Shown here piece after piece: positions 30,273-46,143 of a stretch of DNA of 64,000 bases. The translations under genes and the position numbers were made by a program. Each line of letters starts with the position of its first letter. Positions within the stretch are counted from its first letter, which is position 1. The notes below the pieces were generated by a model that worked only from the letters and a program-made list of their open reading frames with translations, was not told where the DNA came from and searched no databases. Origin of the DNA: Mucilaginibacter ginkgonis (GTDB lineage Bacteria > Bacteroidota > Bacteroidia > Sphingobacteriales > Sphingobacteriaceae); assembly GCF_009754905.2 (NCBI RefSeq), contig NZ_CP066775.1, forward strand, positions 1,488,001-1,552,000, given 5' to 3'.

Positions 30273-31067
30273 ATGAAAAAAAGCATTCTTTTACCGACCA
30301 TCACTACAGCAATTGTATTTACTACTTATACATTTGCCGCAACCGCGCTAATTGATTTACCCAAACATAGCTTTCCGAAACAAGACAGTATTTTTCTAAA
30401 AACTCACTGGCAGCAAATGGGCGGATTTGAACAGGAAACGCCGGATCATTTAAGGCTTGGATGCTGGAGTACCGCATTTGCGCAGATTGTATATTACCAC
30501 CGTTTGAAACCTTTTGGGCATGTTAGTTATACATCCAGTCACGGTTACGTGATTAACGAAGATATAGACAGTTCAAAAATTGATCTTGCAAAATTGTCTA
30601 TGCAGATAGATAAAGTCACACCAACCGCCAATATCGATGCCTTAGCAAAGTATAATTACTATGCCGCATTAGCAGTCAACAAAGATTTTGGAACAGATAA
30701 TTATATGCATAAGTTAGCATCATCAGGTTTGCTTGAACAGCATTACAAAATAAGAGTTAGCCGCTACATTTCATGGAATCATATTCTACCTTATTCATCG
30801 GGGAAACTGGAGCGCATTGTAATGCAAGAAATCAGTTCAAAAAGGCCATTGTTTCTGCACTTTGCCAACCTAAAGGATTTTGGGCATTCTGTGGTTATTG
30901 ACGGTTATAAGCAAATTAATGATCGGTTTTTTGTTCATTTAAATCAGGGGCAAGGCGGCCCGCAAGATGGCTGGTACGATTTTGATGAAGATTTATTACA
31001 TAAAGGCGACCGCAATTTAAGGGTTATTTATACAATCAGGCCAATGCCAAAATCACAGTTGCACTAA
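30273..31067 (+). CDS. Secreted papain-like cysteine peptidase (C10/C39-like)
   Basis: A 264-residue protein with a signal peptide (about 1-24). The catalytic Cys is in RLGCWSTAFAQIVYYHRLKPFG (about residues 67-88) and the His in KDFGHSVVIDGY, followed by HLNQGQGGPQDGWYDFD, matching the streptopain-like pattern of a Cys, a His and an Asn/Gln-rich last strand. It lacks the large pro-domain of streptopain, so it is not a classical C10 enzyme. It is exported from the cytoplasm; the substrate is unknown. It follows the AraC-type membrane regulator. Confidence 0.72.
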   Translation: MKKSILLPTITTAIVFTTYTFAATALIDLPKHSFPKQDSIFLKTHWQQMGGFEQETPDHLRLGCWSTAFAQIVYYHRLKPFGHVSYTSSHGYVINEDIDSSKIDLAKLSMQIDKVTPTANIDALAKYNYYAALAVNKDFGTDNYMHKLASSGLLEQHYKIRVSRYISWNHILPYSSGKLERIVMQEISSKRPLFLHFANLKDFGHSVVIDGYKQINDRFFVHLNQGQGGPQDGWYDFDEDLLHKGDRNLRVIYTIRPMPKSQLH

Positions 31068-32070: not shown

Positions 32071-33330
32071 TCAACCCAGCCTGTGACCTTTCTTCTTCTT
32101 TTTCCTGCGTTTAAACTCGTTTACCTGCGCGTTATCCAAATCAGCAGCATGGTGATCAAGGCCGAGCAGATCGCTGATAAGATCGCTACGAGATAAACCC
32201 TGACAATCCACCTGCTGCCTGTCCTGCTGTTGAGCAGATAAGCGTTCCGAAAGTCCTCCTCCGTTTTCTTTAACTTGAACACGATCAATTCCGTTGCTTG
32301 ATTTGTTTCCTTCAGCCTGCCTGCTGTCAGCGCGATATACATTTCCGTTTTTGACCGGTAAATATCCAGTGCTTTGCTGTACATCCTTTCTATTTCCGGC
32401 AGCAACTTCCTGATCTGCAAAAGCTCTGAGGGTTGTTCGGCTGGTTGATCGGATGTTGCCTTTTCGTTCTGTATTTGCGGATTGTCCGGCATTTCTGGTT
32501 TGCCCTGTTATACTGTACTCACCTCCGGCTCTTGTTCTAACATTTGCCTGGTGTATTGCTGTGCGATCTCTTTCTTGTTCATAACTGATATTGTTTTTGA
32601 TGGCCTGCCACTTGTAAGCATTACCCAAATGGGCACCTTTAAACTGCATACCCTTATACCCGTAAGATATACCGCTTACAAATCCTGTGCTGGCCTGGTT
32701 AAATAATAAGTTCACTTGTTTTGCTTCCAGCAGTCTGATCAATTCATTAGCTGAATTAATATTCTGGTTTAAGGCTTCTTTAACGATCTCCTGAAGTTGT
32801 ATCTTTACCGATGGCAAACTCGTCCGCTTCATCATTTCCCATTCATCCTTGGTCATTGCACTTTCCTTAGATTGTTTGCTCGAAATGACCTCGGTCAATC
32901 CAAACTGCTTTTCAAGGCTTCGTAATACCTGTTCGCTACGCTGGTAGTCTTTGCTGTCAGACACTACTGTTCCGTCATAGCCTATGCGGTTGACCAGTAT
33001 ATGCAAATGGGGATGCTCTGCATCAAAGTGCCGGAAGATTACATGCTGGTTCTGAACAAATCCCATTTTGTTCAGATATTCATTTGCAATATTGTTCATT
33101 TGTTCATCGTTCAGATCTTCAGACGGCGGAAAGTTGATCGAGGTATGGTAAAAGTATTTTTGCAGGTTGGGACGCATAACCCTGACCAAAGCTACTTCTG
33201 CCATGATAGAATGCTCGTTGCCCGATGTAAAAGTCGAATCGAGAATTTTAGCGACATCCCTATCGACCTTTTGTAGATTGTAGCGTAAAGCACTGCGGAA
33301 CCCCTTTCCTTTTACCTGGTCGCCTGTCAT
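32071..33330 (-). CDS. Relaxase (mobilization nuclease, MOBP/MobA type)
   Basis: Nicks oriT and leads the transferred strand. In the 419-residue protein the metal-binding motif is HFDAEHPHLHIL (His at about 101, 108 and 110), and a His in YHTSINF lies near 72. The catalytic Tyr is probably in the first 40 residues (FRSALRYNLQ). Residues after about 260 are low-complexity, basic and probably disordered, and are encoded by the same DNA as a second gene in another frame (32121-32492). It overlaps the mobC stop by four bases, so the two are co-translated. Confidence 0.9.
   Translation of the reverse strand: MTGDQVKGKGFRSALRYNLQKVDRDVAKILDSTFTSGNEHSIMAEVALVRVMRPNLQKYFYHTSINFPPSEDLNDEQMNNIANEYLNKMGFVQNQHVIFRHFDAEHPHLHILVNRIGYDGTVVSDSKDYQRSEQVLRSLEKQFGLTEVISSKQSKESAMTKDEWEMMKRTSLPSVKIQLQEIVKEALNQNINSANELIRLLEAKQVNLLFNQASTGFVSGISYGYKGMQFKGAHLGNAYKWQAIKNNISYEQERDRTAIHQANVRTRAGGEYSITGQTRNAGQSANTERKGNIRSTSRTTLRAFADQEVAAGNRKDVQQSTGYLPVKNGNVYRADSRQAEGNKSSNGIDRVQVKENGGGLSERLSAQQQDRQQVDCQGLSRSDLISDLLGLDHHAADLDNAQVNEFKRRKKKKKGHRLG
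32121..32492 (-). CDS. Membrane-anchored protein nested in the relaxase gene
   Basis: A 123-residue frame on the same strand lies fully inside the 3' third of the relaxase gene. Its product is protein-like: a polar N-terminus (1-25), a long amphipathic, coiled-coil-like helix (about 25-90, LLQIRKLLPEIERMYSKALD), then one clear membrane helix (about 97-119, VYLVAILSAICSALITMLLIWI) and RR end. The relaxase protein in the same DNA is low-complexity, which suggests the nested frame is the constrained one. A role in mobilization or membrane docking is inferred. ATG at 32492; a weak AGGG is 10 bp upstream. Confidence 0.6.
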   Translation of the reverse strand: MPDNPQIQNEKATSDQPAEQPSELLQIRKLLPEIERMYSKALDIYRSKTEMYIALTAGRLKETNQATELIVFKLKKTEEDFRNAYLLNSRTGSRWIVRVYLVAILSAICSALITMLLIWITRR

Positions 33331-33662
33331 TGCATTAATGCTTTTAACACATCCTGCAAGGTCTTCAGAAGCATTGTAAGGATGTTAAGATAAGCAGGTG
33401 ACAACTTGCCTGCATGCAACTGCTTTACAGCCTGGTTCAGGTTGATACCGATCATGTGCAGTTCCCGGTAAACTGCCGCATTTAGCGGGGATAGTTTGAC
33501 CATCGGGAATCTGCCGGTAAATGCTTTCTGCCTGATCCAGTTTGCGGGTGAAATGCCTGATGCTTCCGCAAAGGAATTCACCTTTTTGTTCTCTGCCTCA
33601 GTCAGCCGGATGTTCACCTGAACCACCCGCTTTTCTTCTTCTTGTAATGCTGGTCTTCCCAT
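33327..33662 (-). CDS. MobC-type relaxosome accessory protein
   Basis: A 111-residue ribbon-helix-helix-type protein. The N-terminal VQVNIRLTEAENKKVNSFAEASGISPANWIRQKAF segment is the MobC/ParG-like DNA-binding core; the C-terminal helix (about 75-110) matches the MobC domain that opens DNA near oriT. Stop and relaxase start overlap by four bases. It is next to the inverted repeat at 33706-33750, the probable oriT. Confidence 0.9.
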   Translation of the reverse strand: MGRPALQEEEKRVVQVNIRLTEAENKKVNSFAEASGISPANWIRQKAFTGRFPMVKLSPLNAAVYRELHMIGINLNQAVKQLHAGKLSPAYLNILTMLLKTLQDVLKALMQ

Positions 33663-33705
33663 GAGATGTACATTTAAACGAAGTGTAAAATGGTACTGCC
33701 TCCGA

Positions 33706-33750
33706 ATGGAGCAAGCCGTTTAAGCGTAGCGAAAACATGGCTTGCTCCAT
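33706..33750. other. Candidate origin of transfer
   Basis: A perfect 12-bp inverted repeat ATGGAGCAAGCC / GGCTTGCTCCAT with a 21-base loop lies 44 bp upstream of mobC, the place where oriT is usually found in mobilizable elements. It could alternatively be a terminator of the HTH gene (no T run is seen) or an operator of the mob operon. No nick site is assigned. Confidence 0.55.
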
Positions 33751-33765
33751 ATCAAAAGGACAGAA

Positions 33766-34056
33766 TTATTTACTGAAACTGATCCGTTTGCTTTTGACTT
33801 CTCCCCGTAAAACTTTCATGATATCCTCGTAACTGTAATAGAGGATACCGCCGATTTTGGTGAATGGGATAGTACCGTTATCCCTTAATGTCTGGAGGGT
33901 ATTGTTGGAGATTTTAAGCAGGTTCTTGACCTGGTAACTCTTTAAAAACTTTCGCGGTTCTTCTGCCGATCCGCCGCTGATTAGGGCTTTAATCTGGCCA
34001 AGCAGTCGTTCGCCGAACTCTTGCAAATCTTCCCTGGTGATAATTTCTGTTGCCAT
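33766..34056 (-). CDS. Excisionase-like helix-turn-helix protein
   Basis: A 96-residue protein. The C-terminal half (about 40-90, YQVKNLLKISNNTLQTLRDNGTIPFTKIGGILYYSYEDIMKVL) is a winged MerR/Xis-type DNA-binding domain of the kind found next to mobilization genes in Bacteroidota. N-terminal residues are helical. It may regulate excision or the mob genes. It precedes the mob operon on the same strand, with the candidate oriT in between. Confidence 0.88.
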   Translation of the reverse strand: MATEIITREDLQEFGERLLGQIKALISGGSAEEPRKFLKSYQVKNLLKISNNTLQTLRDNGTIPFTKIGGILYYSYEDIMKVLRGEVKSKRISFSK

Positions 34057-34316: not shown

Positions 34317-35435
34317 ATGAGAATTGAAAATTTTTTAAGCGATTCAATATTTGACTTACCTATTAAACAACCCCCCAAACAAGATTTTAAACAATTTCTA
34401 TTTCGACAGCTTGATATATTTATTCAGAAATTAGAAGAAACACAAATTAGCGAGTCTTCATTTGACACTTTGGAGCACTACCCCATTGCACGTATCTTAC
34501 AACGGCAACTCCATTTTATAGGCAAGATCAAAGAGACAGTTAATGCTTATTATAATGGTAAGCCCTCTGAAGCCTACGCTCACTTATCTGAAGGCTTAGT
34601 AAATCCTAATAAAGACTTCAACGAGGTTCTGCATTTCAAAACTTACCTACCTAAGGAAAACTTTTACCGTATACGAATACACAAAGAAAACTATCCGATA
34701 CCAGTTAACAGTTTTTTTCATATTCCATTCGAAAAAAGAGGATTAGTTAAAACACAACGTTTTAGTATTCCAGGATTCCCTTCTTTATATATTGGTTCAT
34801 CTTTATATGTCTGCTGGGAGGAGATGAATCGGCCTAATATCAACGATTTTCAGGCCGTCCGTTTGAGCCTTACAAGTTCCTTGAAAGTATTAGATCTATC
34901 TCCACCACCAAATGTAAACACTATTTCTTCCGAAAGACGCTATCACTACTTAATGATATGGCCGCTTGTAATGGCCTGCTCTGTTCAAATTCGTAACCAT
35001 AAGGATACTTTTAAGCCAGAATATATAGTTCCTCAGTTGTTGCTGCAATGGGTGAGGGAAAAAGAAGACATAGATGGTATAGCTTACCAAACGACACATA
35101 TAGATTTCAGAAATAATATATCTAAAGGTGACTTTTTCAACCTTGTTTTGCCTGTCAAGGATAACAGGGCAAGGGGGTTATGCAGCCATTTAAAATCAAA
35201 ATTTGTTATGACTAACGCTACTTCGATTCAACTAAGCCAATGTAGTAACAGTGGGCGTCATTATACACTTCTTCAAAGTGAACTGGAATCGCTTAATGCA
35301 CGAGCGCACAAAATTGAAGTAATACCAGGAAAATCTAGCTTTTATGGGTTATCAGTTCTTGGGGAACTTGAAAGGACTTTAAACTATTCAGAAGAACAAC
35401 CGATTGGCATAGAGCAGGATGAATTAGCGGATTGA
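34317..35435 (+). CDS. RES-domain protein (NAD+-degrading toxin family relative)
   Basis: A 372-residue protein. The N-terminal 110 residues are helical. Residues about 114-300 match the RES fold: FYRIRIHKENYPIP, then FSIPGFPSLYIGSSLYVCWEEM, where RES proteins carry the G-PxLYxA-xxxxAxxE pattern. Known RES toxins cut NAD+ and pair with a Xre antitoxin; here no Xre gene is adjacent, and the protein is twice the usual length. First gene of a four-gene plus-strand block. I cannot show that the active-site residues are all kept. Confidence 0.72.
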   Translation: MRIENFLSDSIFDLPIKQPPKQDFKQFLFRQLDIFIQKLEETQISESSFDTLEHYPIARILQRQLHFIGKIKETVNAYYNGKPSEAYAHLSEGLVNPNKDFNEVLHFKTYLPKENFYRIRIHKENYPIPVNSFFHIPFEKRGLVKTQRFSIPGFPSLYIGSSLYVCWEEMNRPNINDFQAVRLSLTSSLKVLDLSPPPNVNTISSERRYHYLMIWPLVMACSVQIRNHKDTFKPEYIVPQLLLQWVREKEDIDGIAYQTTHIDFRNNISKGDFFNLVLPVKDNRARGLCSHLKSKFVMTNATSIQLSQCSNSGRHYTLLQSELESLNARAHKIEVIPGKSSFYGLSVLGELERTLNYSEEQPIGIEQDELAD

Positions 35436-35503: not shown

Positions 35504-36223
35504 ATGGAAAATATTTACAATGATCCCATTATCTCGATTTTTTGGGATAAGGTGACTAACTGGATGGCTTTTCTTCAGCAAAATCCATATTGGCGCAAGT
35601 TTAACAAAGAGAAAATTAGTTACACACTCATATACGACGAGCATGTTAATGAAGATGGTATTCATGAGTTTGAATTCGATGAACAAACAAAGAAAGAGCA
35701 TGAGTTTTTAATGTGTTATGTCGAACTTATTTCATGTCTGAACGCCCTTGTAGAGTGCGAATATTATTTTCGTCGCTATCCGTTTAATGGGTTGCCCGTA
35801 CGTCATGCTGACTACTTGACGCGTAATTGCGAAGTGTTTTTTAACAAAATATATGAATTTAGGGAACGCATTAAAAATCTGGGTGCTGCATATAAAGCGG
35901 TTTCTCCAAACCATTATATGGATACTGGTCGACTCATCAAGCATTACGATAACAGCTTTAGTTACGAATTAAAGGAAAGGAATTTGTTAAATCATCACAG
36001 CCGTTTTAGTGATATAGCGCTAAACAAGTTGGGGATAATAAAGATACTTGAGGAAGAAGACACTAAGTTGGCATTTTTAGAAAGCTCTAATGTGGAATAT
36101 CGCCGCATTTGTAGATTGTGGGTTAAAAAAGTACAAACTAGAAGTGAGGTCGTAAAAAAATACCTAGTTGCAATTACAGAACATCTAACAAGGTATTGTG
36201 GATTTTTGAATGCTGTTAAATAA
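35504..36223 (+). CDS. HEPN-like helical protein of unknown function
   Basis: A 239-residue protein, almost fully helical, with no signal or membrane segment. A candidate HEPN motif R-x4-H is ERNLLNHH at about residues 158-165, with Asn after the Arg as in HEPN RNases. A second polar helix RNCEVFFNKIYEFRERI precedes it. The HEPN call rests on this motif and the helical pattern only. It lies 68 bp after the RES gene and 93 bp before the GHKL gene, in the same direction. Confidence 0.5.
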   Translation: MENIYNDPIISIFWDKVTNWMAFLQQNPYWRKFNKEKISYTLIYDEHVNEDGIHEFEFDEQTKKEHEFLMCYVELISCLNALVECEYYFRRYPFNGLPVRHADYLTRNCEVFFNKIYEFRERIKNLGAAYKAVSPNHYMDTGRLIKHYDNSFSYELKERNLLNHHSRFSDIALNKLGIIKILEEEDTKLAFLESSNVEYRRICRLWVKKVQTRSEVVKKYLVAITEHLTRYCGFLNAVK

Positions 36224-36316: not shown

Positions 36317-37519
36317 ATGATTATTTTTAACCATAAAACAAGCTTAAACTCACTCGAAGACGCATATGAAAAACTCGGAGCCGATAACTCGGTTGACATC
36401 AAGATTTCTAAATCGTTTTCAAATGATGATTTCGGCTTAACACCTGCAATTATCCAATTTTTCGCGACATGGTATCATAGTAACTCTGGAAAGATCATTT
36501 TTGATATAAAAACGGAAGACGTTTCTAATGTTAATTCAGAGTTGTCAGACAAATACTTATCAGATTTTTATCGTCTTGATTTTCTTTTTACCTGCGTGGT
36601 ATATTGTTGGATTAGGCCGATTGAAGATATAGAAGGACGGAATATAAAACCGTTGTTGCGGTTACAGAACGAAAGTCATCACCGCAAAATGAGACGGCAA
36701 CAAATCAACGGGTTTCAAGCAATTTTAGCATGCTTTGACCATCTCGGCAATCAAAAGGGTCTTTTAAATGCCTTCTACACAGATGATGAATTTATTGATA
36801 ATGAAATTGACTTTGATAGAGCGATCGACAAGTCTTTAAGGCAAGTCACATCTTTGAATGTTCAACTTCAACTATCAAATTTTGCTCCCGTGAGACAGGA
36901 TGTAATCGATGTTATTTTTGAGCTCGTAAAAAACACAAATGATTGGGCAAGAGCAGATATCAATGAGCGACCATTGACCCCAAATAGTCGAGGATTATAC
37001 CTTAAAACCCATCGTCGTACTAAGGCCAGTTTTCTAGATATCTACCATGAATATGCGGGATTAAATGGTTTTTTCACCTCAAACTATTTTGAAACAAACT
37101 CAAATAACGAATTATATTTTTTAGAAATATCTGTGTTTGACACTGGCGTTGGTTACGTTAATCGCTTCACTAAAAGACCCACTAATGACTTTTCAACGGA
37201 AGAGCAAGTCGAGGTTATAAAAGAGTGTATGTTGGTCAATAATACATCAGCAACCGGATTAACCGGGAAGTCAAAAGGTAAAGGCTTAGATCGGATCATG
37301 AGAACACTGAACGATAAGGGTTTCTTCTGGCTAAGAACAGGTAATGTTTCTGTTTTCAGAAATCTCATTCAAAATCATTACAAACCCGATGGACTGGTGA
37401 CTGATATTCAGCTCTATGATTGGCGGGAAAATTCTAATGATCGGTTCACTCCTCTCTTCTTGGTCAAAGGAACCGTTGCAACTCTTATATTTCCTTTAAT
37501 GAGGAGGAGCAATGTCTGA
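36317..37519 (+). CDS. GHKL-type ATPase
   Basis: A 400-residue protein. The Bergerat ATP-binding motifs are in order: N box VIFELVKNTNDWA (about 197-209), G1 VFDTGVGYV (about 273-281) and G2 GKSKGKGLDRIMRTL (about 318-332). The first 190 residues are not recognised. No histidine-kinase dimer domain, transducer domain or membrane segment is seen, so it is neither a normal sensor kinase nor a complete MutL or gyrase-like protein. It overlaps the next gene by eight bases, so both products are probably made together and act together. Confidence 0.82.
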   Translation: MIIFNHKTSLNSLEDAYEKLGADNSVDIKISKSFSNDDFGLTPAIIQFFATWYHSNSGKIIFDIKTEDVSNVNSELSDKYLSDFYRLDFLFTCVVYCWIRPIEDIEGRNIKPLLRLQNESHHRKMRRQQINGFQAILACFDHLGNQKGLLNAFYTDDEFIDNEIDFDRAIDKSLRQVTSLNVQLQLSNFAPVRQDVIDVIFELVKNTNDWARADINERPLTPNSRGLYLKTHRRTKASFLDIYHEYAGLNGFFTSNYFETNSNNELYFLEISVFDTGVGYVNRFTKRPTNDFSTEEQVEVIKECMLVNNTSATGLTGKSKGKGLDRIMRTLNDKGFFWLRTGNVSVFRNLIQNHYKPDGLVTDIQLYDWRENSNDRFTPLFLVKGTVATLIFPLMRRSNV

Positions 37520-39923
37520 ATTTTATATCTATTCCTCGAAATATAATACTTTGAATGATTATGCTGAACTAGTCCCAAGATCTGTAACATTTATTTTTTC
37601 TCCCAATAATACACTTTCAGAGAAAAGCGCGCAAACAGAAATTAAAGAGTTTTATCAAACAAATTATCAAACCGACGAGATTATTATTATCGGTGGTACT
37701 TATCAGCAAAAACAACTCGAAGAAACCTTCATTATAAATCAACTTAGCACTTTCAAAAATGTTCCTAAGTTAAAAGCCGATCATCTTGCTGAACATGTTC
37801 ACGTCATGATTTTTAACAAAGACGGTCAACTAACTTGCTGTAACAGAAAAAAATCTATTGATAATGAAACATTAAATAAGTTATTAAATATAGGTATTGT
37901 ACTCATCTTTAAAAATAGAGGTGGACTAATTGAAGCAAAGGGTGATGCTCATCATTTTATATTTCCATCTGGAAAACACTGTGATAAGTTTCTCCGGACA
38001 GGCAATGTTTTGATGAATACTGCTGAAATCTATTTCATTGCATTTAGGCTTCTAGGATACTTTAACGAAAACAAGCACAAAAAGATCTTTTGTGATACCT
38101 CGTCAATTAACACACTAGCATTTGCATTAGCAGAATTGAAAAGCCGATTTGTTAAAAAACTACCTTTCATTCCAATTGAAAGTTTTTCATCCTATGAGGG
38201 TTTATTTTCAAAAAAAGTTCGGTTTTTTAATGATTCATTAATTTTGATATCGTCTTCTACTTCAGGTAATATTATTGAACGTATCCTCGAGCATGATGAG
38301 TCCGTAGATTCACGAAATATTATCATTATATATTTTTTAGGATCCTCAAAAGAATTTAAAAAGAAAGAACATAACATCTTGAGTAATTTAACTCTCTCGG
38401 AAAATAATCCCGTTGGATTTGAATTATATGATACGTATACAGGCAAAGAATGCAGCTTCTGCGCTAAAGGTTCATTTCCCGTCGAAGTTAAAGGTGATGT
38501 ATTTTTGCTCGAAAAACCAAAGGTTAATAAGCTCACAATTCGTGTTACTGATGCGCCTAAACGCTTAGCTGATTTTGTCCAACAATTTATGGCATCGATG
38601 CGCTTTAAAGAGCTTGTTTTTAAGGTCAATTATAAAGAAACGTACGAAGCGAATAGGAAGTACGAGATTTACTTCGACATCTATCAAGTATTAAATGAAA
38701 TTGAAAATCCACGTTACAAAAAGTATCGTCTTAAGCTTTATGATTTCATCAATCAATTCATCCCAAGTAACGCAAAATTTCTAATCGCCTTACCGGACGA
38801 GGGATCTAAAAAGCTGGCGGCAATGATATTGAACCACCTTAAACTCAATTATATCGTTGGTCAGGAACCGAAAATTGTTGATTTCGATAATGTTGCCGAA
38901 GTTATAGTTGATGAGAAAGTTGAAGGTGCAGCCGTAATCATAGCTTCATGCATTTCTAATGGTAAAAACCTACTTTATCTTAGCCGTGCTTTTCGTAATT
39001 ACGAACGCCTAAAGCTCATTTACTTTATTGGCCTAACGCGGACTCATAATCAAGAGGATCTAGATTTTCTTAAGAGTAACCTACGTCAAGGAAACTATGG
39101 TAAGGAAACCCATTCTTTTGTAGAAGTGGAAAGTTTCTTCTGCAATCGTGATGTGAAAGGAACCAACTGGCTGAATGAAAAAGAATTTATTCAATCTCAA
39201 TTATTACCATTAGCCAACGCTATGGAATATGAGAACGCAAAGCATTTTTTGGAAGAACGTGTCGAAATTATTAATGACAGTCAAAGCAAATTGAACAAGG
39301 GGCTTGCAAATGAACTTTTCTACCCAAGTACTGACACTGAACAGCTAGAGTTGAGAAAGGGTTTTGCGTTCATCAATTTCGGTACGAAATTCGAAGACCT
39401 AAGCCAAGCTGATGTTTACTTTACAATTTCCGCGATACTGAACCAGTTGAGAAATGCCAAGGAGCAAGGTCATTGTTTACGTCAATCAGAGTATGTGAGA
39501 AATCTCATTGATCCTGGCAACTTCAATAGGTTTAATGATGGTATTATTCAAGCAAGCATTTTACGTGGTGCGCGGACAACCGAGCTTGCTTACCGGATCG
39601 ATGATGACGCTAGTTTGAATATGAAATTAATTTTAGAAAAGATTATTTCAGAACATCATACGCCACAAGGCGAAGGATTGATAGAATTCTTATATGCGAT
39701 TGCCACCCAAAAATTGACTCTAAAGCAAGAACACCTCGAACAACTAAGCCACCAGATTGATCAAATACACAATAACGAGCTGGTTTTGTTATTCAACAAA
39801 TATATTAAAAACGAAATCATTAAAGAAAAGCCGACTTTACAACAAAAAATAACAGATCTCGAAAACCAAAATCAGGAACTCTTTGAGAAGATAGCGTTAT
39901 TAGAGGCAAAAATTCTAAGGTAA
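37512..39923 (+). CDS. Large protein with two phosphoribosyltransferase-like domains
   Basis: An 803-residue cytoplasmic protein. One PRTase-like unit covers about 130-270: FPSGKHCDKFLRTG resembles the orotate-PRTase entry motif, and LILISSSTSGNII stands where the PRPP loop should be. The second covers about 430-540: FLIALPDEGSKKLAA, then AVIIASCISNGKNLL. Neither loop has the usual acidic pair, so nucleotide or PRPP sensing rather than catalysis is likely. A CSFC motif lies near 313, and a coiled coil closes the protein (about 770-803). Starts eight bases inside the GHKL gene. Confidence 0.7.
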   Translation: MSEFYIYSSKYNTLNDYAELVPRSVTFIFSPNNTLSEKSAQTEIKEFYQTNYQTDEIIIIGGTYQQKQLEETFIINQLSTFKNVPKLKADHLAEHVHVMIFNKDGQLTCCNRKKSIDNETLNKLLNIGIVLIFKNRGGLIEAKGDAHHFIFPSGKHCDKFLRTGNVLMNTAEIYFIAFRLLGYFNENKHKKIFCDTSSINTLAFALAELKSRFVKKLPFIPIESFSSYEGLFSKKVRFFNDSLILISSSTSGNIIERILEHDESVDSRNIIIIYFLGSSKEFKKKEHNILSNLTLSENNPVGFELYDTYTGKECSFCAKGSFPVEVKGDVFLLEKPKVNKLTIRVTDAPKRLADFVQQFMASMRFKELVFKVNYKETYEANRKYEIYFDIYQVLNEIENPRYKKYRLKLYDFINQFIPSNAKFLIALPDEGSKKLAAMILNHLKLNYIVGQEPKIVDFDNVAEVIVDEKVEGAAVIIASCISNGKNLLYLSRAFRNYERLKLIYFIGLTRTHNQEDLDFLKSNLRQGNYGKETHSFVEVESFFCNRDVKGTNWLNEKEFIQSQLLPLANAMEYENAKHFLEERVEIINDSQSKLNKGLANELFYPSTDTEQLELRKGFAFINFGTKFEDLSQADVYFTISAILNQLRNAKEQGHCLRQSEYVRNLIDPGNFNRFNDGIIQASILRGARTTELAYRIDDDASLNMKLILEKIISEHHTPQGEGLIEFLYAIATQKLTLKQEHLEQLSHQIDQIHNNELVLLFNKYIKNEIIKEKPTLQQKITDLENQNQELFEKIALLEAKILR

Positions 39924-40248: not shown

Positions 40249-43200
40249 CTATGGGTTCAATGTTTTAATCAAATAAATTTCCTGCTTACTTAATTTATAA
40301 AGGCTAAAAATTAGATCATTTATAAAATCTTCAGTGTTTTTTATACTGGTTTGGATATCCTGATAAATAAGAACATTCTCATTAAATAAGTCCATCCATT
40401 CAAATTCTTCCTTTTTTGAAAGTAGATCGAGACCAGTAGCTCTCAATGTTTTGTTCAATTCATCAACAAATTGTGGAAAGGAACAGTCTTGCCAAGCTTT
40501 AAGTTTTGATAGTTCAGCACTAACGAACTTACTTGAGAGGTAGGAATAAAATTTATGGGTAATAGCCTCTGATTTTTTGGACAGTTCAATTAATATTTTG
40601 CACTTTTCAATGATTTTGAAATAGTGACTTTTTTCATTACTTAATTCAGATTTATCTAGATATAATGGTAGATCGGCGATTTTTTCTGTGCTTAATTGGT
40701 TGAACTGGCCTTGCACGATGTAATACTGAAGCAAGCTACTGTTTAAAATCGCATTGACATACATAGTTAACTCTATAGAATTTGTCTTTGTTTCTTTAAT
40801 CTTATCTATAATGGCAGAATTTGGAAAAATGAAATTTTGTCCTCCAGACCCTCCTCCAGAAGAGTAAAAAGACTGATCGGAAAACGTAAATACGTCCATA
40901 TTTTTCGTATTAACGACGATTTTTGATGACTCGAACGGTACATTGCGCCTTTCATACAAAGGGAGATACCATTTTTTCTGACGCATAATTTTTTGAACTG
41001 CTCCAGCGGAACTATAATTTTGTTTAATTTCATCGGTGGAGAAGCCTAAAAATTCTTTAAGCGTGATTACTTTGTTTTCGTTTATGGTAGATCTGTTTAA
41101 TAAAATTTTATCGAACTGCAAAAGATAGTCCTTGATTTTTTCGGTTAGATTGTGTTGACCAACATATATAACAAACGTATCTGTGTTATGGATGAACCAC
41201 TTTTTTAAGTGTTCCGGTTTATAGTAGAGCTTAATAAAATTTTTATCTTCTTCATCTAATAAAATCCAGTCGTTGTTTATTTTTAAGAAAACATCACCTT
41301 TCTGCCACTTGATATCTTTGTTTTTGTTTAATATGAAGATGCCTCTACCTAGATAATCTTCGCTTATTAATTTTGAAATGACATGTTTATTTGTCACCTT
41401 GTCTGCACCCGTCACTAGACCTTGAGAAATATCAAATACTTCTCCTAAAGGAACAATAAAGTTAGAATAGCTAATTTCAAATGAATTGAAATTCCAAGGT
41501 TTATATGTATCAGATTTTAATTTTTGCACGTCATAATTCAAATGATTTAGCTTGTCGAAAAGAACATTTTGAAGGGTCTCATAGTTATTGAGAGCTTTGA
41601 ATCGGAATGTATATTGACTCACCTTCTCTTTCTTCTGAGTTAGAATTAAACTCGTTGTTCCCACATCATCAAATACTTTAAGGTTATTGAAATCTACAAT
41701 TTCGACAATCTTTGACTCCTCTAACACTTCTTTTCTTACGTTGTTAGCCCAATCAGCATTAGTAAATTCTCTTGGAACAATTAAACTCTGAACTCCACCA
41801 TCTTTTAAAAGGTCAATCCCGTGTTTTATAAAAAAGTAATATGTGTTTGATCTACGTCTATAGTAACCATTCCATTTCGGAACTTTTTTGAGGTCTTCAA
41901 AAATGTTTGAATGACCTTTTTCTCCAACATAAGGAGGATTTCCAATTATGACATCAAATCCTCCTCGTTCAAAAATATGAGGAAACTCTTTTAACCAATC
42001 AAATGCATTTTTACCAGCAATATTTGCATCACTAATTAATGAATTACCACATTTGATATTGTTATTTAGATCATTTAATTTCCTGTTAGTCTTAGCTGTT
42101 CGTAACCATAAAGACAGTTTTGCAATCTCAACGCTCTCTTCATTTAAGTCAACTCCAAAAAGATTATTCTCAAGAATGCTCTTCTCAACATCACTGAGCA
42201 AAAGAGTATCGCTAAACAGCTTCGCTTGCAATTCGTCGATATAACGATGCTCGTTGATCAAATAGTCTAGCGCTTGATTTAGAAATGCACCTGAACCACA
42301 TGATGGGTCGCAGATTGTTAATTGTAAAAGCCATTTTCTATATTCAGTCAGATTATCAACTAGACTCTGAATCGTCCTTTTTTGCCGCCTTCGATCTAAT
42401 GTATAATCTTCCTCAATTATCTTTTGATATACCTTTCTTTCTAAGCACAGCTTCCCAATTGTGTTATCTACGATGTATTTTGTGATATACTTTGGAGTAT
42501 AAAAAACACCATCCTTTTTTTGCTTGGTATTAGATTTATCAAATTCGAGGCCTTCGAGTTTCGCCTTTATTTCATCAAGTTCATTAAGTGAGTTTTCAAA
42601 AATATGACCTAAAATATTTACATCAACTTCACTTTGAAAATTATATTCGGATAAAGTAAACGTATGTCTGTAAAGAAGCTCGTCATCGATATTAACAATA
42701 TCAAGAATTTCATCTGGTTTGAAAAGGCCCCCATTATAGGCAAAAACATCATATCGTTTACCTTTAAAGCCTAAATTAAGGTAATTAAAGTACTTCTTAA
42801 ATCGATCATATAGCCTGACGTCTTCATCACGATCCTGCAAGTCCCTCCAATCATTTAAAATAAGTCTAACAGAATTTGGTGGTAGTAACTGCCGATCTTC
42901 AGCAAAAAAAAGGAACAAAAATCTATCTAGCAGTTTTTGTGATTTTTTGAATAGCAGCAGTGGCTCAAGACTGGAATTTTTCAGCACTAAACTTTGGTAT
43001 AATTCTCTTTTAAACAAAGAATAGTCAAAGTATAACTTCTTTGTAATCTCTTTCTCTTTGCTTACAGATTCCTCTTTAATTATTTTTGGTAAATTCTTAA
43101 ATATGTTATCATAACTTAAGCATAAGTATAATAGAGCGAAATCTTCTTCTGTAAGCGTAAATAAATTAAACTCCAGATATTCAGTTGCGTTTTCTATATA

Positions 43201-43629
43201 AAAACGAAGCTTTTCAAAATTCGAGGTAATAATATATACGCATTCAGGCTGATTGTTTTTATAACCAAATGCTTGTGTTTCGACTTTAGTTAAATCTGTA
43301 GTATTTATCCCTTTAAGTTCTATAACTGCTGTAACTTTCCCATTTATAATAATTGCTCCATCCGCTTTTCGACTGTCTTTAGCATTTTTATATTCAGTAG
43401 TTAAATTAAAATAAGGAGCTGGATTCTTTGTATAGCCGAAAATATTTACAAACAAATCAATGAGAAACTCACCCTGATATTGCTCTTCCTTGCTTCTACG
43501 GATGTTTTCCTGAATTATTGCATTTTGAAAATGTCTTCTAAATAACTGCCATTTTATCGATATGGCGGTTCTATCTTGGCTGTTTAGATATTTATTTTGT
43601 ACGGATTTTTGGAAAAAAGTATTGCTCAT
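40249..43629 (-). CDS. Type IIG restriction-modification enzyme (nuclease, methyltransferase and recognition in one protein)
   Basis: An 1126-residue protein that should both cut and methylate DNA. An N-terminal PD-(D/E)xK nuclease is suggested by ADGAIIINGKVTAVIELKG (about 86-105, D then ExK). The gamma-type adenine methyltransferase has motif I DPSCGSGAFLNQ (about 440) and motif IV NPPY (about 563). The C-terminal third (about 720-1000) is the recognition domain. The ATG at 43629 is preferred over one 30 bp upstream, which would lie ahead of the RNA start predicted from 43649-43679. It protects the element or acts against phage. Confidence 0.92.
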   Translation of the reverse strand: MSNTFFQKSVQNKYLNSQDRTAISIKWQLFRRHFQNAIIQENIRRSKEEQYQGEFLIDLFVNIFGYTKNPAPYFNLTTEYKNAKDSRKADGAIIINGKVTAVIELKGINTTDLTKVETQAFGYKNNQPECVYIITSNFEKLRFYIENATEYLEFNLFTLTEEDFALLYLCLSYDNIFKNLPKIIKEESVSKEKEITKKLYFDYSLFKRELYQSLVLKNSSLEPLLLFKKSQKLLDRFLFLFFAEDRQLLPPNSVRLILNDWRDLQDRDEDVRLYDRFKKYFNYLNLGFKGKRYDVFAYNGGLFKPDEILDIVNIDDELLYRHTFTLSEYNFQSEVDVNILGHIFENSLNELDEIKAKLEGLEFDKSNTKQKKDGVFYTPKYITKYIVDNTIGKLCLERKVYQKIIEEDYTLDRRRQKRTIQSLVDNLTEYRKWLLQLTICDPSCGSGAFLNQALDYLINEHRYIDELQAKLFSDTLLLSDVEKSILENNLFGVDLNEESVEIAKLSLWLRTAKTNRKLNDLNNNIKCGNSLISDANIAGKNAFDWLKEFPHIFERGGFDVIIGNPPYVGEKGHSNIFEDLKKVPKWNGYYRRRSNTYYFFIKHGIDLLKDGGVQSLIVPREFTNADWANNVRKEVLEESKIVEIVDFNNLKVFDDVGTTSLILTQKKEKVSQYTFRFKALNNYETLQNVLFDKLNHLNYDVQKLKSDTYKPWNFNSFEISYSNFIVPLGEVFDISQGLVTGADKVTNKHVISKLISEDYLGRGIFILNKNKDIKWQKGDVFLKINNDWILLDEEDKNFIKLYYKPEHLKKWFIHNTDTFVIYVGQHNLTEKIKDYLLQFDKILLNRSTINENKVITLKEFLGFSTDEIKQNYSSAGAVQKIMRQKKWYLPLYERRNVPFESSKIVVNTKNMDVFTFSDQSFYSSGGGSGGQNFIFPNSAIIDKIKETKTNSIELTMYVNAILNSSLLQYYIVQGQFNQLSTEKIADLPLYLDKSELSNEKSHYFKIIEKCKILIELSKKSEAITHKFYSYLSSKFVSAELSKLKAWQDCSFPQFVDELNKTLRATGLDLLSKKEEFEWMDLFNENVLIYQDIQTSIKNTEDFINDLIFSLYKLSKQEIYLIKTLNP

Positions 43630-43648
43630 ACCTATTTGTGGGTCGAAT

Positions 43649-43679
43649 CGAAAGTACAAACTACATATAAATGCACAAA
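43649..43679 (-). promoter_or_regulatory. Promoter of the type IIG gene
   Basis: On the minus strand TTTG (43676-43679) is followed after 19 bp by TACTTTCG (43649-43656), one mismatch from TAnnTTTG. It predicts RNA starting near 43643 and a 14-base leader to the ATG at 43629. Confidence 0.6.
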
Positions 43680-44336: not shown

Positions 44337-45550
44337 ATGAAAACTACGTTCAGTTTGCTTTTTTATTTAAAGAAGCCAAAAAATTATGAAGACGGGCCTG
44401 TACCCGTTTATTTAAGGATTACGGTAGCCGGTAAAAGATCGGAAACCGCATCAGGCCGCGAATGCCTGCCCTCACTATGGAATGCGCCAAGGGCAGGATG
44501 AAAGGTAACAAAGAAGAAGTTAGATCATTTAATGCCTATCTCGACAACCTGCAATATCAAGTTTACGAGACTCACCGCGTTATGACGGACGCGCGCAAGG
44601 TGATTACAGCAGAAACCCTTAAAAATTCTTTGCTCGGAAAAGGTGACAAACCGCTAATGTTATTGAACATTTTTAAAGACCATAATAGGAAGGTTGCAGC
44701 ACTGATTGGTGACGAGTATGCTTCGGGTACTTTAACGCGTTACGAGACATCTTTGAAGCATACACGGAACTTTTTAGAATGGAAATATCAGGTCCCTGAT
44801 ATAGACATCAAGGAGATAGACCATGATTTTATCACTAGTTATGAATTCTACCTGCGATCCGAGCGGAAATGTGCGAATAACTCTGCTGTAAAGTACATTA
44901 AGAATTTTAAAAAAATTATCAGGATTTGTTTAGCAAGCGGCTGGTTAACTCGCGATCCTTTTTTGAATTATAAGGCAAAAGTAAAACAGGTAGACAGAAC
45001 TTTTCTGAATCAGGAAGAAATTCAATTATTAGCGGATTATACATTTGTTACCGATCGTTTAAACCAGGTCAGGGACACATTTTTATTTTGCTGTTTTACG
45101 GGACTTGCTTATGCAGATGTTCACAAACTCAAGAAATCTGAAATCGTCAAAGGCTTAGACGGGGAAATGTGGATTTACACAAAAAGAAAAAAGACCGATA
45201 CACCAAGCCGCATACCTCTGCTCCCATCGGCTTTAATTATTTTAAACCGTTATGAAGATCACCCTTTTTGCGAAAGCCAAGGAAAAGCATTGCCTGTCTC
45301 ATCTAATCAAAAGATGAATGCATACCTAAAAGAAATAGCAGGCGTTGCGGGTATCAATAAACCATTGACCTTTCATATAGCCAGGCACACCTTTGCAACT
45401 ACTGTAACGCTATCAAATGGTGTTCCAATTGAAAGCGTCAGTAAAATGTTAGGGCATACGAACATTAAGACTACCCAGCATTACGCAAAAATACTTGATC
45501 TGAAAGTTGGAAACGATATGGCTGCTTTAAAAGCAAAATATGCCGGATAA
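44337..45550 (+). pseudogene. Second tyrosine integrase, frameshifted
   Basis: The frame from ATG 44337 encodes the N-terminus (KTTFSLLFYLKKPKNYEDG, ending RECLPSLWNAP...) and stops at 44499-44501. The other frame continues with AKGRMKGNKEEVRSFNAYLDNL to 45550, including HIARHTFAT and TTQHYAK. Joined, it matches the 20408 integrase along its length. One base missing near 44484-44490 explains the break. The catalytic part from 44462 could still be made, but without the N-terminal arm-binding region. Confidence 0.88.
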
Positions 45551-45609
45551 ATCAATTTAATCAGGTTGCTATTCGCAACTTAATTTCCGTAATCATTTAA
45601 GCTACTATT

Positions 45610-46143
45610 ATGAGCGATTTAATAATCAACGAAAATCTTCTTGCAAGCAAGATCTATTATATAAGAAAACAAAAAGTCATGTTGGACAGGGATCTTGCCA
45701 CACTGTATGGTGTCGAAACCAAAGTTTTAAAGCAATCTGTTAAGCGACACGCTAAAAGATTCCCAGTAGATTTTATGTTCGAAATGAGTAGCGATGAATT
45801 CAAAAATTGGAGGTCACAATTTGTGACCTCCAATTCTGATCTAATGGGGTTGCGCTATGCACCCTACTGTTTTACAGAACAAGGCGTCGCAATGCTATCC
45901 AGCATTTTAAATAGCGAGACAGCAATAGAAATAAATATTCAGATAATTCGCCTTTTTACCAAACTGCGTCAGTTGTTAAATGACGAAACTGATTTGAAAA
46001 TTGATGTTGAGCAGATTAAAAGGAAACTGGAGTACCACGATAAAAATATCGAGCTTGTATTTAAGTATCTTGATGAACTTATCGAAAAAAGAAACGTTAA
46101 TCAACCCAGAAAGACAATAGGCTATAAATCTGATGAATTATAA
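45610..46143 (+). CDS. ORF6N-domain protein, copy 2
   Basis: A 177-residue homologue of the protein at 21691: ORF6N domain KIYYIRKQKVMLDRDLATLYGVETKVLKQ, the conserved FTEQGVAMLSSILNS block and a C-terminal helix (about 125-165). It lies 59 bp after the second integrase. The gene looks intact although the integrase is broken. Whether it still has a function is unknown. Confidence 0.88.
   Translation: MSDLIINENLLASKIYYIRKQKVMLDRDLATLYGVETKVLKQSVKRHAKRFPVDFMFEMSSDEFKNWRSQFVTSNSDLMGLRYAPYCFTEQGVAMLSSILNSETAIEINIQIIRLFTKLRQLLNDETDLKIDVEQIKRKLEYHDKNIELVFKYLDELIEKRNVNQPRKTIGYKSDEL

What the first reader, a model, noticed from the sequence alone, without database searches (positions are those of the whole stretch)
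36317..39923. Overlapping GHKL ATPase and tandem PRTase-like protein whose PRPP loops lack the acidic pair
The genes overlap by eight bases, so the proteins are likely made in a fixed ratio. In the 803-residue protein both loops (ISSSTSGN near residue 247 and ASCISNGK near 475) have the shape of the PRPP loop but not its DD/ED pair. Active PRTases need these acids. This suggests two sensor-type domains joined with an ATPase that has no kinase dimer domain.
Basis: partly seen in the sequence, partly recalled or inferred. Interest (0 to 1): 0.7.

Follow-up and report, generated by a model that had tools for sequence, protein, structure and literature searches.

The report
ATPase paired with disabled nucleotide-making enzyme
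Two overlapping genes, found side by side in scattered bacteria and often next to DNA-restriction genes, pair an ATP-binding switch protein with a protein that contains two copies of a nucleotide-making enzyme fold whose active-site acids are gone in every relative, so they are probably an anti-virus alarm rather than metabolism.

Summary
A (36317-37519, 400 aa) and B (37512-39923, 803 aa) overlap by 8 bases, and both B loops lack the acidic pair. The pair is PADLOC's unpublished candidate defence system PDC-M65 (E 1.7e-126 and 2.6e-302). Confident models show a SpoIIAB-like GHKL domain in A and two orotate-PRTase folds in B (Z 12.1 and 10.6). New here: the first fold of B descends from pyrE_Therm orotate PRTase. 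A profile of it retrieves such enzymes, and profile-profile comparison gives 96% over 174 columns, including the substrate hood and a C-terminal CxxC. It has replaced the acids (ED to S[AS]), the ERKE lysine region (to SFxSY) and the PPi loop (to DTSSI). The acid pair is absent in all 70 homologues aligned, and the replacements are nearly invariant, so this is repurposing, not decay. A and B co-occur in 5 of 5 genomes, lie adjacent across five phyla, co-diverge (r 0.94) and sit near type I restriction genes about 40 times more often than chance. Best explanation: a self-contained defence module in which the pseudo-OPRT of B reads a ligand and A is its ATP-driven switch. Defence activity, ligand and output are inferred.

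The parts
36317..37519 (+). Gene A, 400 aa, PDC-M65A: N-terminal domain plus GHKL ATPase domain
   Evidence: ORF; PADLOC PDC-M65A E 1.7e-126; model pLDDT 92.2, pTM 0.93
36317..36706 (+). A residues 1-130: alpha/beta N-terminal domain of unknown fold
   Evidence: secondary structure of the model; not covered by fold matches; STAS relationship tested by hhalign and not supported
36707..37516 (+). A residues 131-400: GHKL ATPase domain, closest solved folds SpoIIAB and histidine-kinase CA domains
   Evidence: VIA-align Z 11.4 to SpoIIAB 1l0o, 140 residues, 3.1 A; the protein ends right after the last GHKL strand
36920..36934 (+). N box E202-L-V-K-N206
   Evidence: E202 and N206 invariant in 65 homologues
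37139..37153 (+). G1 box D275-T-G277-V-G279
   Evidence: D, G and G invariant in 65 homologues
37277..37288 (+). G2 box G321-K-G323-L324
   Evidence: invariant in 65 homologues
37501..37509 (+). GAGGAGGAG, ribosome-binding-like sequence for B inside A
   Evidence: sequence
37512..37519 (+). 8-base overlap of A stop and B start
   Evidence: sequence
37512..39923 (+). Gene B, 803 aa, PDC-M65B: N domain, two PRTase folds, C-terminal helical domain, coiled tail
   Evidence: ORF; PADLOC PDC-M65B E 2.6e-302; model pLDDT 92.3, pTM 0.84
37512..37925 (+). B residues 1-138: variable N-terminal domain; a separate gene in a Spirosoma plasmid relative
   Evidence: L009 encodes B as two ORFs overlapping by 4 bases, matching residues 1-138 and 139-770; highest entropy of the main domains
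37926..38501 (+). B residues 139-330: pseudo-orotate-PRTase domain 1 (D1)
   Evidence: fold match to OPRT 4ohc Z 10.6, model 119-317; hhalign to pyrE_Therm OPRTs 96.3%, E 1.5e-9, 174 columns, 50 column shuffles at most 24.2 against a score of 63.2
37950..37997 (+). Retained OPRT hood motif HHFIFPSGKHCDKFLR (residues 147-162)
   Evidence: aligned with HFVLSSG[RK]HSxxYLQ of pyrE_Therm OPRTs
38088..38111 (+). FCDTSSIN (193-200) in place of the PPi loop; D195 invariant
   Evidence: 70/70 D; OPRT has PAIGG there
38181..38201 (+). SFSSYEG (224-230) in place of OPRT ERKEGE; S227 and Y228 invariant
38247..38270 (+). Loop 1, ISSSTSGN (246-253), acidic pair replaced
   Evidence: no acidic pair in 70/70; S247 invariant
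38451..38462 (+). C314-x-x-C317, shared with the C-terminal CPxC of pyrE_Therm OPRT
38556..39179 (+). B residues 349-556: second OPRT-like fold (D2), less conserved
   Evidence: fold match to OPRT 4rv4 Z 12.1; sequence alone is weak (score 21.3 against at most 16.6 in shuffles)
38943..38966 (+). Loop 2, ASCISNGK (478-485), aligned with VVEDLISTGKS of the genome's own OPRT
39312..39821 (+). B residues 601-770: C-terminal helical domain with invariant Q632, R673, D676, Q680, R685, E725
39837..39917 (+). B residues 776-802: C-terminal helix, probable coiled coil, not conserved
   Evidence: model; alignment

Best explanation
A and B are the two subunits of a self-contained, horizontally mobile anti-phage defence module (PDC-M65). 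B descends from orotate phosphoribosyltransferase. Its first PRTase domain has kept the fold, the substrate-side hood and the phosphate-binding end of the PRPP loop. It has exchanged the acids that hold ribose and Mg-PRPP and the PPi-binding basic residues for a new, almost invariant set (H148, R162, D195, S227, Y228, S247, S251). It therefore most likely binds a nucleotide-like ligand without phosphoribosyl transfer. The second PRTase domain most likely completes an OPRT-style pseudo-dimer. A is a SpoIIAB-type GHKL protein that binds ATP and works as the switch of the complex. The output comes from the strictly conserved C-terminal helical domain of B, since no third gene travels with the pair. 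Shown: gene pairing, folds, ancestry, loss of the canonical motifs, defence-type context. Inferred: complex formation, ligand binding, switch logic, defence activity, nature of the output.
For: Defence context: PADLOC PDC-M65A/B. In 50 genomes, about 10 pairs have a strong N6-methylase gene in the fetched flanks against 0.25 expected, 9 of the 10 in the same direction. Several pairs are embedded in type I RM operons. Other loci have TIR, Qat or SIR2-like neighbours. In the window: relaxase, integrase and a type IIG restriction enzyme. Unit: B and A found in the same 5 genomes of 395, adjacent in nearly every locus with room, mirror-tree r 0.944 against at most 0.139 in permutations. No recurrent third gene apart from RM genes. 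Fold: B; A. Ancestry of D1: and the reciprocal search, where a pyrE_Therm profile ranks first the two true OPRTs and then B proteins among 5434 ORFs. Loss with replacement. The genome has its own ordinary OPRT.
Against: No experiment on PDC-M65 was found (no paper in the library names it). No coordinates were available to test the pocket or an A-B interface. The pocket of D1 is so conserved that a changed enzyme activity is as compatible as binding. About four fifths of the 50 tested loci have no N6-methylase gene in the flank. The output domain has no identified relative.
Confidence: 0.5

Rival explanations
1. B is not a sensor but an enzyme with changed chemistry: the invariant D195, S227, Y228, S247 and R162 of D1, or R673, D676, Q680, R685 and E725 of the C-terminal domain, form an active site that makes or destroys a nucleotide, with A as ATP-dependent regulator.
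For: These residues are more conserved than expected for a mere binding scaffold: 9 invariant positions in the D1 alignment and 9 in the C-terminal alignment. The replaced loops are fixed, not degenerate. The pair appears to need no other gene.
Against: All canonical PRTase catalytic features are gone. No known enzyme family matches the C-terminal domain.
Confidence: 0.28
2. A-B is an accessory of restriction-modification: it controls or supports type I RM enzymes beside it and is not a defence system of its own.
For: Enrichment and co-direction with hsd genes, several times inside the operon.
Against: Most loci have no N6-methylase gene within the fetched flanks. The positions relative to hsdR/M/S differ. 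There is no recognised DNA-binding domain. Plasmid and island copies stand alone.
Confidence: 0.12
3. A-B is a stress or metabolic regulator of the partner-switching kind (SpoIIAB/RsbW-like) that only hitch-hikes on mobile islands.
For: SpoIIAB is the nearest solved fold of A. PRTase-fold regulators exist (PurR, PyrR, GfcR; established knowledge).
Against: No STAS or sigma partner: the STAS comparison of the A N-domain does not exceed shuffles. Patchy presence (5 of 395 Bacteroidota genomes) and a strong defence context.
Confidence: 0.08

Closest known systems
PADLOC candidate system PDC-M65 (PDC-M65A + PDC-M65B)
   Same: Both proteins match over their full length; same gene order and adjacency
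   Different: Nothing in the architecture; PADLOC gives no description of mechanism or domains. The OPRT ancestry and the site replacements are added here
Orotate phosphoribosyltransferase, pyrE_Therm (TIGR01367)
   Same: Fold, SGxHS hood, phosphate-binding TSG end of the loop, C-terminal CxxC; significant profile match to D1
   Different: Acidic pair, ERKE basic segment and PPi loop replaced; two domains in tandem; extra N- and C-terminal domains; tied to a GHKL gene
PRTase-fold regulators (PurR, PyrR, haloarchaeal GfcR)
   Same: A PRTase fold used for sensing in place of, or besides, catalysis (established knowledge)
   Different: By established knowledge these keep the acidic pair and respond to PRPP or nucleotides; B has lost it and has no DNA- or RNA-binding domain recognised here
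SpoIIAB / RsbW anti-sigma kinases
   Same: Nearest solved fold of the A GHKL domain (Z 11.4), no transducer or histidine dimerisation domain
   Different: A has a 130-residue N-terminal domain and a pseudo-OPRT partner; no STAS or sigma partner found
GHKL-containing defence proteins such as Vibrio VcSduA (Shedu with GHKL, PMC12137116)
   Same: A GHKL ATPase in phage defence, there required for protection
   Different: VcSduA is one protein with a PD-(D/E)xK nuclease; A ends after the GHKL domain and B has no recognised nuclease

Membership tests
PADLOC PDC-M65 | A and B match the two PADLOC profiles over full length | tested here: met
   E 1.7e-126 (2-396 of 400) and 2.6e-302 (1-770 of 803)
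PADLOC PDC-M65 | the two genes are adjacent and co-occur | tested here: met
PADLOC PDC-M65 | protects against phage | not testable with these tools
   needs expression and phage challenge; no paper found
Type I PRTase / orotate PRTase | PRTase fold | tested here: met
   D2 Z 12.1 and D1 Z 10.6 to OPRTs; Foldseek E 8.6e-6 to UMP synthase
Type I PRTase / orotate PRTase | PRPP loop with [DE]D acidic pair (PS00103) | tested here: not met
   0 of 70 B proteins, 18 of 21 OPRT controls
Type I PRTase / orotate PRTase | ERKE-type basic segment with the catalytic lysine after strand 2 | tested here: not met
   replaced by SFxSY, S227 and Y228 invariant
Type I PRTase / orotate PRTase | N-terminal substrate hood SG[KR]HS | tested here: met
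Type I PRTase / orotate PRTase | phosphoribosyl transfer activity | not testable with these tools
   pyrE complementation or enzyme assay needed
GHKL ATPase superfamily | N, G1, G2 boxes and GHKL fold | tested here: met
Sensor histidine kinase | DHp dimerisation domain with phosphoacceptor histidine | tested here: not met
   no HisKA-type Pfam match in 65 A proteins at E 0.01; no invariant histidine in A (H142 at 88% is the most conserved)
MutL/MORC/Hsp90-type GHKL | transducer domain after the GHKL domain | tested here: not met
   A ends 7 residues after the last GHKL strand (386-393 of 400)
SpoIIAB/RsbW | STAS antagonist or sigma partner | tested here: inconclusive
   hhalign of A 1-130 against STAS not above shuffles; other partners not tested

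The most novel reading that the evidence does not exclude
B is an immune sensor made from a disabled orotate PRTase that reads a phage-altered nucleotide, perhaps a deoxy- or modified nucleotide: the lost acidic pair is the one that holds the ribose hydroxyls. Binding releases an ATP-driven A-B complex to stop infection. That would be, to my knowledge, the first immune receptor derived from de novo pyrimidine synthesis. The accessory thymidylate synthase ThyX beside the pair in five Hyphomicrobiales loci would fit, but it is not specific to this pair.
Probability: 0.2. Interest if true: 0.85.

Novelty: new variant of a known kind. Interest (0 to 1): 0.55.

Why it matters
If right, bacteria have turned a core pyrimidine-synthesis enzyme into a defence component by changing its active site while keeping the fold and substrate hood. 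That makes a direct question testable: which small molecule does it read during infection? It also turns an anonymous candidate entry (PDC-M65) into a concrete hypothesis with named residues to mutate.

Tried and rejected
B as ordinary or housekeeping OPRT: rejected, since the genome has its own OPRT at G000:600265 and B lacks every catalytic motif. Loop loss as local decay in one genome: rejected, 70/70 homologues. A N-domain as STAS: tempting from its secondary structure, but hhalign was below shuffle level. TNFAIP8 match of the A profile (E 4e-4): helical segment only, not supported by the fold search, set aside. ThyX as a dedicated third gene: five loci carry it and two complete genomes also have ThyA, but closely related thyX genes sit beside other P-loop ATPase cassettes in rhizobia, so it is not specific. 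RES gene and 239-aa gene upstream as part of the module: no homologues near other pairs. Two weak PDC-M65B hits (L007, L008) are true pyrE_Therm OPRTs, which exposed the ancestry. First genome-contig scan with the single protein found nothing. D2 and the C-terminal domain gave no significant sequence relative outside the family. Attachment repeats of the island were not recognisable.
Full report
Check of the observation. Two ORFs, A 36317-37519 (400 aa) and B 37512-39923 (803 aa), overlap by eight bases. A GAGGAGGAG just before the start of B may let ribosomes start there independently, so coupling is likely but a fixed ratio is not shown. The two loops are at residues 246-253 and 478-485, and neither has the acidic pair.

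Identity. Pfam and NCBIfam give no meaningful match to A or B. PADLOC matches both over full length: PDC-M65A (E 1.7e-126) and PDC-M65B (E 2.6e-302). PDC entries are described in a later paper as unpublished candidate systems of the PADLOC authors (PMC11811056). A preprint of that group reports defences embedded in other immune systems (Payne et al. 2024, doi 10.1101/2024.01.29.577857, seen only as a citation in PMC12255303). No paper in the library names PDC-M65.

Family. Scans gave 80 loci in named genomes, 11 plasmid records and 2 viral contigs, from Bacteroidota, Alpha-, Beta- and Gammaproteobacteria, and single Planctomycetes, Verrucomicrobia and Acidobacteria assemblies. No match in 50,697 phage records. 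A lies directly upstream of B on the same strand in essentially every locus with enough contig. Leaving out split or interrupted copies, 64 of 89 pairs overlap. In 395 Bacteroidota genomes the strong hits of A and of B fall in the same five genomes. Pairwise distances of A and B correlate at r 0.944, against at most 0.139 in 500 permutations. The pair is therefore inherited and transferred as a unit.

Context. In 50 genomes holding the pair, 60 strong N6-methylase genes were counted in 248.6 Mb, so about 0.25 would be expected in the fetched flanks. The script lists 12; in my check two of these (L044, L063) do not agree in length with the local ORF, leaving ten. In several loci the pair sits inside or at the end of an hsd operon: hsdR-M-S-A-B in L043 and L061, hsdM..S-A-B-hsdR in L059, A-B-hsdM-S in L033. 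Other neighbours include TIR genes and a Qat system. In the window the pair lies between mobilisation genes (relaxase, NikA/MobC-like) and a tyrosine integrase, beside a type IIG restriction enzyme.

Structure. The model of A (pLDDT 92) has a GHKL domain at 131-400. Foldseek found only weak matches, mostly GHKL proteins (MORC2, Grp94, Hsp90; best E 0.05). VIA-align ranks SpoIIAB first, Z 11.4 over 140 residues, before histidine-kinase CA domains and topoisomerases. The N, G1 and G2 boxes are invariant, there is no transducer domain, and no dimerisation-histidine domain was detected. The model of B (pLDDT 92, pTM 0.84) matches UMP synthase and OPRTs (Foldseek E 8.6e-6). VIA-align places OPRT on residues 349-556 (Z 12.1) and again on 119-317 (Z 10.6). 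B is therefore a tandem OPRT-like protein, flanked by a variable N domain (a separate gene in a Spirosoma plasmid) and a C-terminal helical domain.

Ancestry of domain 1. A profile of D1 searched against 349 proteobacterial genomes found a few B relatives and about 45 short ORFs of roughly 193-290 aa, nearly all matched in the same first third of the profile. All 16 fetched carry HFVLSSG[RK]HS, and the two tested are pyrE_Therm orotate PRTase (TIGR01367). Profile-profile comparison of D1 with these 16 gives 96.3%, E 1.5e-9 over 174 columns, reaching to a shared C-terminal CPxC/CxxC. Fifty column shuffles reach at most a score of 24.2 against 63.2. In reverse, a pyrE_Therm profile against 5434 ORFs of the loci ranks first the two true OPRTs (L007, L008, which had been weak PDC-M65B hits) and then B proteins.

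What was lost and what replaced it. OPRT EDVITTGGS became [IV]S[AS][ST][TS]SG; OPRT ERKEGE became SFxSY[ED]G; the PPi loop PAIGG became DTSSI. S247, D195, S227, Y228, R162 and H148 are invariant or nearly so in 70 homologues. Loop 2 aligns with VVEDLISTGKS of the genome's own OPRT, with A-S in place of E-D. The positions are fixed rather than drifting, so the site was rebuilt for something else. The second most constrained region is the C-terminal domain: R673, D676, Q680, R685, E725, Q632. Its profile found no other architecture in 345 genomes.

How it most likely works (inference beyond the facts above). With no recurrent third gene, sensing and output must lie within A and B. The retained hood and phosphate-loop end argue for a nucleotide-like ligand in D1; loss of the acids argues against Mg-PRPP chemistry. 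A, with intact ATP motifs and a SpoIIAB-like fold, is the natural switch. The C-terminal domain of B is the best candidate for the output. Confidence in the whole picture is 0.5. Confidence that the pair is a defence module of some kind is about 0.75, and that both PRTase domains lack ordinary PRTase activity about 0.93.

Novelty. The gene pair is a member of a catalogued but uncharacterised candidate system. The GHKL plus tandem pseudo-OPRT architecture, the pyrE_Therm ancestry and the replaced site were not found described in the papers searched, which cover open-licence papers only.

Noticed in passing
L012, L013, L018, L084, L096; L102-L106: An accessory ThyX (thymidylate synthase) gene lies directly beside the A-B pair in five Hyphomicrobiales loci, upstream or downstream, and the two genomes tested also have ThyA. 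Related thyX genes lie beside other cassettes with a 600-700 aa P-loop ATPase, metallophosphoesterase or ~330-aa proteins, or DNA methylases. ThyX may be a general accessory of rhizobial defence islands.
   Followed up: partly
window 34317-35435 and 35504-36223: RES-domain gene (372 aa, PF08808 E 1.8e-5) followed by a 239-aa gene without any family match, just upstream of A-B; a possible separate toxin-type pair.
   Followed up: partly
window 40249-43659: Type IIG restriction enzyme-methyltransferase (PADLOC E 3.2e-268) on the opposite strand next to the pair.
   Followed up: no
window 32071-34056 and 44462-46143: Relaxase, NikA/MobC-like gene, HTH_17 gene, tyrosine integrase and an ORF6N gene (PADLOC PDC-S05) frame the region like a mobilisable element.
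   Followed up: partly
window 30273-31067: Peptidase C10 (streptopain-like family) protein, 264 aa.
   Followed up: no
L009 7974-8417 and 8414-10327: In a Spirosoma plasmid B is split into two ORFs overlapping by 4 bases exactly at the border of the N domain and D1.
   Followed up: yes
A residues 141-142 (window 36737-36742): Invariant D141 and 88% conserved H142 at the start of the GHKL domain, outside the classical motifs; role unknown.
   Followed up: no
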